64,000 nt of DNA. Source: Methyloligella sp. (GTDB lineage Bacteria > Pseudomonadota > Alphaproteobacteria > Rhizobiales > HXMU1428-3). Location of the stretch: contig BQJJ01000008.1 in NCBI GenBank assembly GCA_021604645.1, positions 62,001 through 126,000 of the forward strand, written 5' to 3'. The notes beneath the pieces are model-generated. The model did not search any database, was not told the origin of the DNA, and saw nothing but the letters and a program-made list of their open reading frames with translations. Positions 14,247 through 58,693 of this stretch are shown here, in pieces. Every line of letters starts with the position of its first letter. The stretch's first letter is position 1. The translations under genes were made by a program, and so were the position numbers.

Positions 14247-14935
14247 AGCAAATATCCTCTCGCGGTTTCAATGACATATATAAATGCCATGTTTTCTCCG
14301 CGAACACAGTAAGCTTTAACAATGAATTCTTTGAAAAAGAATCTCACAAAGCTACTCTTAAGTTTTAAACTTAAGAAGGGAAGGCGGAATTAAAAATTAA
14401 ATGAAAAATCATCGCACTAACTTTTGAAGTGCAACAAATCTGTCGCTTAAGTCACTTATTAACGAAGCAAAGTCAAGGAGAAACGTGAAGTTTATGAAAA
14501 ATATTTAAAACGCTCCTCCAAAATCTTTAAGCATTTCACCTAAAAAGCGTGTAGCAATTTTAAGAAATACCCGAAAAATTTCGCGGTAACTTTCGTGCCA
14601 ATTGTTTAAGTCGGCAACCTGAAGTCCCACTTAAGAAAGCAAGTTGCTCGTTGCGGTTTCTGGTGGGAAACTGAAGCGACACTAAATAAAGAACACCTTA
14701 GAAGGCGCTTAAAAAATTTAGTATCTTTTTCGTGAAAAAAAATCGTTAAGGTTAAATTCTAGACCGTTCTAAACACCCCAAAAAGAAACTGCACAAAGTA
14801 AGTTTGCGCGAATCAAAAACAAAAAAACGAATCATTTTCCTTAACGAACACAGTTAATTCACAAAACTCCTATGGTTTTTAAATACAAAAAAAATACAAT
14901 TTCAAAATTTTTTTCCACAAGTAGAAAGAAAAAAA
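14247..14935. other. Long AT-rich intergenic region between divergent genes
   Basis: No gene was found in these 689 bases. The region must contain the promoters of the helicase (minus) and the HIT gene (plus), and could hold a long helicase leader. The only clear structure is one member of the dispersed hairpin family at 14655-14677. Confidence 0.6.
14655..14677 (+). repeat. Dispersed hairpin repeat, unit 1
   Basis: GGTTTC-TGGTGG-GAAAC-TGAAGC. The stem differs from other units (GTTTC/GAAAC instead of GTTGC/GCAAC or GATGC/GCATC), but the GTGGG loop region and TGAAGC tail are kept. Confidence 0.6.
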
Positions 14936-32823: not shown

Positions 32824-32876
32824 GATTTTCTTTCATTAAGTAAGGGGCAGATAAATCAAATAAACTACATATCATC

Positions 32877-33100
32877 TACACGAAGAAGGAGTGATACACT
32901 TCGGTGTGAGAACATGGCAAAACCATCAATCAGCTGAAGGCGAAAAACATAGGCCTCTGCGCGGTTGCTAAATGGGCAAGCTAAAGCGCAAATAAAAAAG
33001 AGGCCATCAGTGCTTAGCGCTGCACCTCGTAGGGCGGCAGCTTCCCTGCCATTGCCCGTGAGAGAAAAAAAACCGAGCAGAAAGTTTCTGCTCGGTCTTT
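32877..33100 (+). ncRNA. Candidate structured RNA or mobile repeat, copy E1
   Basis: This intergenic element shares blocks with another at 58441-58693. In order: CGAAGAAGGAGT; a stem TACAC-TTCG-GTGTG (a UUCG tetraloop); AACATGGCA; a stem GGCCTCT/AGAGGCC (32952-32958 with 32999-33005) enclosing a hairpin-family unit, GGTTGC-TAAATGG-GCAAGC, with tail TAAAGCGC; and GCCCGTGAGAGA (33054-33065). A terminator follows at 33072-33100. In the other copy both stems have different sequence but still pair, which argues for selection on structure. Whether it is transcribed is unknown. REP-like DNA is an alternative. Confidence 0.5.
33072..33100. terminator. Terminator between E1 and infC
   Basis: ACCGAGCAGAAA / TTTCTGCTCGGT, a 12-bp perfect stem, followed on the plus strand by CTTTT and on the minus strand by a run of eight Ts. 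It ends infC and could end a + strand RNA from E1. Confidence 0.85.
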
Positions 33101-58352: not shown

Positions 58353-58440
58353 GTGTTTTGAAATTAAAAATAAGATTTTGATAAAATTCTATCCTGCATC
58401 CTAATCACTTTTAGGTAGATTCAAAAAACACCCCTCTATA

Positions 58441-58693
58441 TATACGAAGAAGGAGTTCAGCCCATTTCGGGCTGAAAGACATGGCAGCAAAGCACGGTTG
58501 TTTATGGGCAACCTAAAGCGCAGATACAGACAAAAGCTGCCCGGCGTAACGAGATCAGCCTGAGCGGAGCTTTGCGAGCACGGATAAGCTGATCGCAAAA
58601 AACACCGCCCCTTTGGAGGGTCTGCCGCTTCAGCAGCGACGGTTGCTAGTGGGCAACCTGAAGGAGCATTTAAAAATCATAGCCCGTGAGATA
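58441..58693 (+). ncRNA. Candidate structured RNA or mobile repeat, copy E2
   Basis: Shares with E1: CGAAGAAGGAGT; an 8-bp stem TTCAGCCC/GGGCTGAA; ACATGGCA; a stem GGCAGC/GCTGCC (58483-58488 with 58536-58541) enclosing unit GGTTG-TTTATGGG-CAACC with tail TAAAGCGC (58496-58521); and GCCCGTGAGATA at the end. Between, it has extra material, including a further hairpin unit GGTTGC-TAGTGG-GCAACCTGAAGGAGC at 58641-58667. It lies between converging TPR and penicillin-binding genes. Confidence 0.5.

What the first reader, a model, noticed from the sequence alone, without database searches (positions are those of the whole stretch)
32877..33100. Two homologous intergenic elements with covarying stems: a candidate structured RNA family
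E1 here and E2 at 58441-58693 share CGAAGAAGGAGT, ACATGGCA, a TAAAGCGC tail and GCCCGTGAGA in the same order. Both main stems differ in sequence but remain paired (TACAC/GTGTG versus TTCAGCCC/GGGCTGAA; GGCCTCT/AGAGGCC versus GGCAGC/GCTGCC). One stem in E1 is capped by UUCG, a stable RNA tetraloop. E1 ends at a terminator usable on the same strand. This is the best candidate for an undescribed system in the window.
Basis: partly seen in the sequence, partly recalled or inferred. Interest (0 to 1): 0.82.

Follow-up and report, generated by a model that had tools for sequence, protein, structure and literature searches.

The report
Fork-polarised dispersed structured DNA repeats
The two look-alike stretches are two of about a hundred copies of a small folding repeat scattered between genes of this bacterium, almost all pointing the same way relative to DNA replication; it looks like a mobile repeat of a recognised general kind whose mover is unknown.

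Summary
E1 and E2 share a conserved head, tail and covarying stems, but they are not a pair: they belong to a dispersed repeat family. The head pattern has 86 exact matches in this 3.57 Mb genome, its backwards control 0. Compact units are 94-121 nt with five helices. Pairing is kept by compensating changes (96.1% of cells paired, shuffled 81.9%, 0/500), G-T outnumbers A-C in helix P1 24 to 4, and no Rfam family matches. Orientation is nearly uniform: 96 of 98 positions agree within contigs, and AT-skew sign predicts it in 17 of 17 contigs. Two further repeats, A and B, sit inside the unit; B is itself dispersed (201 exact 14-mers). The E1 and E2 sites are empty in several sister species. No target duplications; no Y1 transposase or RVT_1 reverse transcriptase in the high-copy sister G002. 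Best reading: a non-autonomous, structure-defined mobile intergenic repeat, REP-like in location but longer and untagged. The terminator beside E1 most likely belongs to infC. An RNA role is neither shown nor excluded.

The parts
32858..32881 (+). E1 leader: A-rich stretch ending CTACAC; consensus over 78 copies is A-rich, then ..CTAACTATAC
   Evidence: column composition of 78 copies
32882..33067 (+). E1: core repeat of the subfamily with a long P2, carrying one B insert
32882..32891 (+). E1 head GAAGAAGGAG
32895..32908 (+). E1 P1 stem TACAC/GTGTG with TTCG loop
   Evidence: read; P1 statistics
32952..33005 (+). E1 P2 stem GGCCTCT/AGAGGCC, interrupted by B
32959..32998 (+). B repeat inside the P2 loop of E1
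33008..33022 (+). E1 P3 hairpin CAGTGC-TTA-GCGCTG
   Evidence: alignment
33026..33062 (+). E1 P4 (CTCG/TGAG and GGGC/GCCC) enclosing P5 (GGCAG/CTGCC)
33054..33065 (+). E1 tail GCCCGTGAGAGA
33073..33095 (-). hairpin terminator, most likely of infC, not part of E1
   Evidence: read; a similar hairpin in sister genomes that lack E1; not listed by the scan
58423..58445 (+). E2 leader, A-rich, ending ATATAC
58446..58693 (+). E2: core repeat with two B inserts and one A insert (248 nt)
58446..58455 (+). E2 head GAAGAAGGAG
58456..58476 (+). E2 P1 stem TTCAGCCC/GGGCTGAA
58483..58541 (+). E2 P2 stem GGCAGC/GCTGCC, interrupted by B
58493..58533 (+). first B repeat of E2, in the P2 loop
58548..58601 (+). 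A repeat of E2, in the P3 loop
58636..58677 (+). second B repeat of E2, between P5 and the 3' strand of P4
58680..58693 (+). E2 tail TAGCCCGTGAGATA

Best explanation
E1 and E2 are copies of a non-autonomous mobile intergenic repeat that is defined by its fold. Shown: about 100 copies in this genome, one five-helix fold kept largely by compensating changes, sites filled in one species and empty in sisters, nearly all copies in one orientation relative to base skew and so, most likely, to replication, mostly outside longer ORFs and often beside gene ends. Inferred: copies spread when the sense strand folds as a single strand and an unidentified trans-acting enzyme recognises head, stems and tail and places the copy, at or near the replication fork, into intergenic DNA in a fixed polarity, without target duplication. 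Smaller repeats A and B follow the same polarity and settle in loops and hinges of the larger unit, giving composites such as E2. Once in place a copy is probably neutral or a mild 3'-end element for the neighbouring gene.
For: Copy number and control: 86 head matches, control 0; 103 copies called in the fetched stretches, 86 of them with a P1 stem of 4 or more pairs. Covariation: 30 sequences, 96.1% of cells paired against 81.9% in shuffles, covariation score 0.366 against 0.121, 0/500; P1 arms pair 96.1% with their own partner and 64.4% with a swapped one (96 of 103 copies counted). Strand: G-T 24, A-C 4 of 670 pairs. Polarity: 96 of 98 positions, 97 of 103 copies, AT-skew sign 17 of 17 contigs, rpoB on the strand opposite to most copies of its contig, 5 of 5 heads and 15 of 15 B on G000:C8, 6 of 6 and 14 of 14 on 200 kb of G002:C2. 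Mobility or lability: within 420 nt of the same gene end, E2 is present in G000 and G002 but absent in G003, G006, G007, G001 and G004; E1 is absent in G007 and G004, two different copies stand there in G001, and G002 has an extra copy; further filled/empty differences between G000:C8 and G002:C2. Inserts: 22 of 23 A in core and 28 of 28 B in core lie in the core's orientation.
Against: No mover is known: Y1_Tnp only in G000, two genes flanked by an unrelated repeat; RVT_1 only in G004 and G006. No target duplication above shuffled pairing. Filled and empty sites were mostly not clean insertions but replaced stretches, and at least two B differences are tandem units, so slippage and deletion explain part of the variation. 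Six B inserts at the P3-P4 junction replace the CTCG strand of P4. The lower pairs of P4 (CTCG/TGAG) hardly vary and rest on conservation, not covariation. GC skew agrees with orientation in only 13 of 17 contigs, and the stretches outside the window were not masked for the repeats. Skew and rpoB suggest that the sense strand is the leading-strand template, which is not the strand expected to be exposed on the lagging template.
Confidence: 0.62

Rival explanations
1. The repeats act as RNA: sense transcripts (or read-through of the upstream gene) fold and stabilise, process or terminate mRNA, as proposed for REPs; the fold is kept because the RNA works.
For: Sense-strand fold kept, G-T 24 against A-C 4; few copies between divergent genes, 8 of 98 with both neighbours known against 35 convergent; an opposite-strand gene stop lies within 60 nt of the 3' end in 48 of 67 cases; antisense of P1 plus head reads as hairpin-CTCCTTCTTC, listed as terminator-like for E2 (1 found, shuffled mean 0.8).
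Against: No promoter above chance at E1 (0, shuffled mean 0.6) or E2 (1, shuffled mean 0.7); only 34 of 103 copies have a same-strand gene downstream; sites empty in sister species. The replication polarity is not explained.
Confidence: 0.2
2. The repeats serve the chromosome: a polarised, structured site read at or behind the replication fork, kept in one orientation by selection.
For: Near-perfect polarity in G000 and on one contig of G002, not explained by gene direction (194 same, 183 opposite ORFs of 150 aa or more).
Against: Head-pattern copies number only 2, 1, 0 and 0 in four of the seven sister genomes, although the covariance model finds at least 9 to 11 in each of those (capped); sites are not conserved; the sense strand is not the one expected to be single-stranded on the lagging template.
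Confidence: 0.1
3. RNA-mediated spread, a bacterial SINE-like retroposon copied by a reverse transcriptase in trans.
For: Sense-strand fold; A, B and core all end in A-rich stretches.
Against: No RVT_1 in G000 or G002, the two genomes with most head matches; no target duplications.
Confidence: 0.05

Closest known systems
REP sequences (GTAG- and CGTC-tagged; Di Nocera 2013, PMC3733652: abstract, sections 6 and 15 and passages read)
   Same: High-copy intergenic stem-loops, mostly between convergent or unidirectional genes and close to gene 3' ends, heterogeneous stems, G-T pairing; CGTC REPs, most of them in Alphaproteobacteria, apparently lack a dedicated transposase too, according to the abstract.
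   Different: Compact core is 94-121 nt with five helices rather than one stem-loop of 20-40 bp; no terminal GTAG or CGTC tag; copies in one orientation rather than mostly in head-to-head dimers as CGTC REPs; composites with nested repeats; G000's two Y1 transposase genes are flanked by another repeat.
Rhizobium intergenic mosaic elements (RIME) and BIMEs (seen only as cited titles in PMC2873474; content recalled)
   Same: Mosaic, intergenic, palindromic repeats; RIMEs occur in rhizobia.
   Different: RIME sequence was not at hand, so kinship was not tested; I recall no strand polarity reported for them.
MITEs of DDE transposases (recalled)
   Same: Short non-autonomous repeats, intergenic.
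   Different: No terminal inverted repeats by reading and no target duplications here.
IS200/IS605 single-strand transposition (recalled)
   Same: Hairpin-recognising, strand-polarised insertion at forks is the nearest model of the polarity.
   Different: No Y1_Tnp match in 7 of 8 genomes of the genus; the inferred polarity looks opposite to lagging-template insertion of the folded strand.

Membership tests
Any Rfam 15 RNA family | match at or above the gathering score | tested here: not met
   window, gathering: tRNA only; 10 loci with copies, E up to 5: nothing on the elements
REP (GTAG/CGTC) | 20-40 bp single stem-loop | tested here: not met
   core 94-121 nt compact, five helices; B, about 38 nt, does fit the size
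REP (GTAG/CGTC) | terminal GTAG or CGTC tag | tested here: not met
   core ends are GAAGAAGGAG and GTGAGAGA, B ends in ACTAAAAA, by reading
REP (GTAG/CGTC) | RAYT (Y1) transposase associated (GTAG REPs) | tested here: not met
   PF01797 in 1 of 8 genomes; no core, A or B motif found in the two loci around those genes
REP (GTAG/CGTC) | intergenic, beside gene 3' ends, few between divergent genes | tested here: met
   16 of 103 overlap an unannotated ORF of 90 aa or more
MITE | terminal inverted repeats and target duplications | tested here: not met
   no duplication above shuffled, n=78 of 103; ends not complementary by reading
Retroelement or group II intron | reverse transcriptase in the same genome | tested here: not met
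   no PF00078 match in G000, G001, G002, G003, G005, G007; matches in G004 and G006
cis-regulatory leader RNA or riboswitch | same-strand position upstream of a gene class | tested here: not met
   34 of 103 have a same-strand gene downstream; gene classes of the copies were not annotated
small protein gene (head as ribosome site, ATG in GGACATG) | one open frame kept | tested here: not met
   frames 19:15:7 in 41 of 44 compact copies, ORF 2-50 aa over 44
RIME | sequence kinship to rhizobial RIME | not tested
   no RIME sequence at hand; one compact core finds nothing in 72,556 plasmid records
omega-RNA of IscB/IsrB (HEARO) | IscB/IsrB gene or HEARO model match | tested here: inconclusive
   no Rfam match; the protein was not searched for

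The most novel reading that the evidence does not exclude
A class of mobile repeats that inserts almost only in one polarity relative to the replication fork, recognised by the fold of one single strand, and moved by an enzyme that is neither a Y1 transposase nor a reverse transcriptase; with a hierarchy (B and A inside core, B inside B) in which the loops of one repeat are the target of the next.
Probability: 0.2. Interest if true: 0.8.

Novelty: new variant of a known kind. Interest (0 to 1): 0.5.

Why it matters
Small dispersed repeats are often explained by a known transposase. Here two co-resident repeat families show near-absolute polarity and a fold kept by covariation, and neither Y1_Tnp nor RVT_1 was found in a high-copy genome. 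If the mover is found it would show another way in which folded single strands are copied into chromosomes; if there is none, selection for polarity would itself need an explanation. It also warns that covarying intergenic structures can be repeats rather than regulatory RNAs.

Tried and rejected
Rfam at gathering and at E up to 5: nothing on the elements. Target-site duplications: 13 of 78 copies share 7 nt or more between flanks, shuffled pairings give about 12. Y1 transposase and reverse transcriptase as movers: not found in the high-copy sister genome. Coding reading (GGAG-hairpin-GGACATG as a start site): frames not kept. Viral carriers: the two core-pattern hits are chance by reading; B-type matches with up to one mismatch stand in viral-labelled contigs L290 (seven, on both strands), L291 (three) and L292 (one); one compact core finds nothing in 50,697 phage or 72,556 plasmid records. 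Class-wide search for B: 15 of 384 other genomes hold one match each, the backwards control rings in 9; that sample held only 4 other genomes of the order and no sister species. Literature: six searches listed no paper whose title or printed abstract start concerns this repeat; only PMC3733652 (abstract, two sections, passages) and PMC2873474 (passages) were opened. RNAalifold on the first alignment misaligned P1; P1 was therefore tested apart, where 13 of 103 copies (under 5 Watson-Crick pairs) were dropped and 7 of 103. Alignments: 43 short copies were listed, 39 aligned, 30 of these used for model and pair counts; the structure counted was set by hand from the RNAalifold result on an overlapping set, which favours it against slid versions. 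In one search only 11 candidates per genome were scored, so counts there are floors. The 98 positions were compiled by hand; the listing is cut after contig C14, and some of the 98 are bare 12-mer matches.

Full report
What is there. E1 (32882-33067 +) lies between an HI0933-like flavoprotein gene and infC, both on the minus strand; E2 (58446-58693 +) lies between the 3' ends of a TPR protein gene and a penicillin-binding protein gene. E1 folds far better than shuffles (z -5.1, on a stretch that includes the infC hairpin), E2 does not (z -1.2).

A repeat family, not a pair. BLAST with E2 gives 56 matches in the own genome including itself, with E1 48; neither list contains the other element, and some matches lie in one copy. 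The exact 12-mer CGAAGAAGGAGT occurs 67 times, its backwards control once. The head pattern GAAGAAGGAGY-N12-30-GGACATG occurs 86 times in G000, 91 in G002, 56 in G003, 43 in G006, 2 in G001, 1 in G004 and 0 in G005 and G007, with 0 in the 53 genomes outside the genus and 0 control matches. With a covariance model all 8 genomes of the genus (9 to 11 matches each, 11 being the cap) and 30 further genomes of the order have matches at E 1e-4 or better (38 of 397). Named relatives are Hyphomicrobiales MAGs and Rhodomicrobium sp. DHS20C08.

Anatomy. Compact copies measure 94-121 nt from head to tail. Order: A-rich leader ending CTATAC, GAAGAAGGAG, P1, GGACATG, P2, P3 (GGYGC-NNN-GCRCC), P4 (lower part CTCG with TGAG, upper part GGGC or GGC with its complement), P5 inside P4, GTGAGAGA, A-rich. 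In 30 aligned insert-free copies 96.1% of pair cells are standard pairs (shuffled 81.9%), 11 of 20 pairs have a change on both sides, covariation score 0.366 (shuffled 0.121; slid partners 0.030-0.072). The support is uneven: P5 6 of 7 pairs with changes on both sides, P3 3 of 6, P4 2 of 7, its lower four pairs none. P1, tested apart, has 46 distinct 5' arms in 90 copies, and G-T outnumbers A-C 24 to 4; own arms pair 96.1%, swapped arms 64.4% (only copies with at least 5 pairs were counted). So the folded molecule is the sense strand. P2 was seen by reading and was not counted. E1 belongs to a subfamily with a longer P2; similar copies are in L024, L040 and G006.

Inserts. A (hairpin GATCAGCC...GCTGATCG plus A tail) sits in the P3 loop: 13 of 16 cases in called copies have P3 arms that pair across it. 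B (GCGCGGTTGC-NNG-TGGGCAACCTGAAGCGCNACTAAAAA) is about 38 nt and is a dispersed repeat in its own right: 201 exact 14-mers in G000, 241 in G002, 190 in G006, 156 in G003, 91 in G007, 22 in G004, 3 in G005, 0 in G001, control 0 in all eight. In the fetched stretches and the window 120 of 123 B lie in the majority orientation, and all 28 B in a core lie in the core's orientation; of 33 A, 22 are in core and same, 1 in core and opposite, 10 outside. Of 23 B in the cores that one search examined (those with a tail and a P1 stem), my reading puts 11 in the AATA linker between P5 and P4, 2 in the P5 loop, 6 at the P3-P4 junction (these replace one P4 strand), 1 each in the P3 and P2 loops, 2 unclear; the script itself sorted them 13, 9 and 1. 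Many may descend from few events. B inside the loop of another B is seen in L184 (the one clear case of 3 candidates) and in a stretch of G002:C2.

Polarity. Of 98 positions, 96 share the majority strand of their contig (random expectation 64.6, maximum 78 in 20,000 trials). With the looser calls, 97 of 103 do, and the sign of AT skew matches orientation in 17 of 17 contigs; GC skew is of the opposite sign, as expected, in 13 of 17 and fails in C7, C9, C14 and C15. In the window, with E1 and E2 masked, all eight 8-kb bins have AT skew above 0 and GC skew below 0. ORFs of 150 aa or more are 194 same, 183 opposite, so gene direction does not explain it. rpoB on C3 is on +, 5 of the 6 C3 copies are on -. 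That leading strands are usually G and T rich and carry rpoB is established knowledge (recalled), so the sense strand is most likely the leading-strand template.

Context. Of 103 copies, 35 lie between convergent genes, 55 between genes in one direction, 8 between divergent genes, 5 at stretch ends; 16 overlap an unannotated ORF of 90 aa or more by over half (genes here are ORFs of 90 aa or more, not annotation). The stop codon of an opposite-strand downstream gene is within 60 nt of the 3' end in 48 of 67 cases, median 27. REPs are reported in such places too (PMC3733652, section 15).

Lability. At infC, within 420 nt: E1 in G000, G002 and G006; an additional complete core in G002; two other copies, one reversed, in G001; none in G007 and G004; G003's contig ends; G005 has no infC match. 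At the penicillin-binding protein gene: E2 in G000 and G002, none in G003, G006, G007, G001, G004, and only a B-like piece in G005. G000:C8 against 200 kb of G002:C2 (about 83-96% identical in aligned blocks over 1.5 kb) shows a B-B-core stretch only in G002, two B only in G000, a core with an internal deletion in G002, and gained or lost tandem B units.

Mechanism. I commit to a structure-defined, non-autonomous mobile repeat with fork-coupled, strand-polarised placement (0.62 for the repeat reading as a whole; the fork-coupled step alone I would put near 0.35, inference). Missing: an enzyme. Y1_Tnp is found in 1 of 8 genomes and RVT_1 in 2 of 8, neither in G002; other recombinases were not searched for. 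No target duplications. An RNA role of the inserted copies (0.2) is compatible with the sense-strand fold and with what is proposed for REPs, but no promoter stands out at E1 or E2 and 67 of 103 copies face an opposite-strand gene downstream.

Novelty. By features it is a REP/MITE-like repeat that fails the tests for tagged REPs, MITEs, retroelements and Rfam families. The unusual points are a five-helix fold kept by covariation, near-absolute polarity of two co-resident repeat families, and nesting. I file it as a new variant of a known kind.

Noticed in passing
window 14610, 14663, 29947, 37044, 37080, 48981, 49017, 53518 (all +): Standalone B-type repeats, at least two pairs of them in tandem, all in the same orientation as E1 and E2; those at 14610, 14663 and 29947 are degenerate.
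   Followed up: partly
L143 and L144 (G000:C1, about 10-17 kb): Two Y1 (RAYT-like) transposase genes with nearby repeats of another kind, AATTACGGTGACAGT.
   Followed up: no
L290 (IMGVR_UViG_3300035000_000010) and L291: Viral-labelled contigs that hold B-type repeats (seven matches in L290, both strands) but no core element found.
   Followed up: no
G000:C9:1 and G000:C11:1: Two contigs begin with the same copy of the core and A insert and then diverge, so the assembly breaks inside these repeats.
   Followed up: no
G000:C8:168469-169135: About 0.5 kb absent from G002 that reads as a small protein gene, resembling a BLUF photoreceptor domain as I recall it; not searched.
   Followed up: no
spacers between tandem copies, e.g. 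in L183, L245, L151: Tandem copies stand 18-24 nt apart from tail to next head in the cases I read, although the spacer sequence varies.
   Followed up: partly
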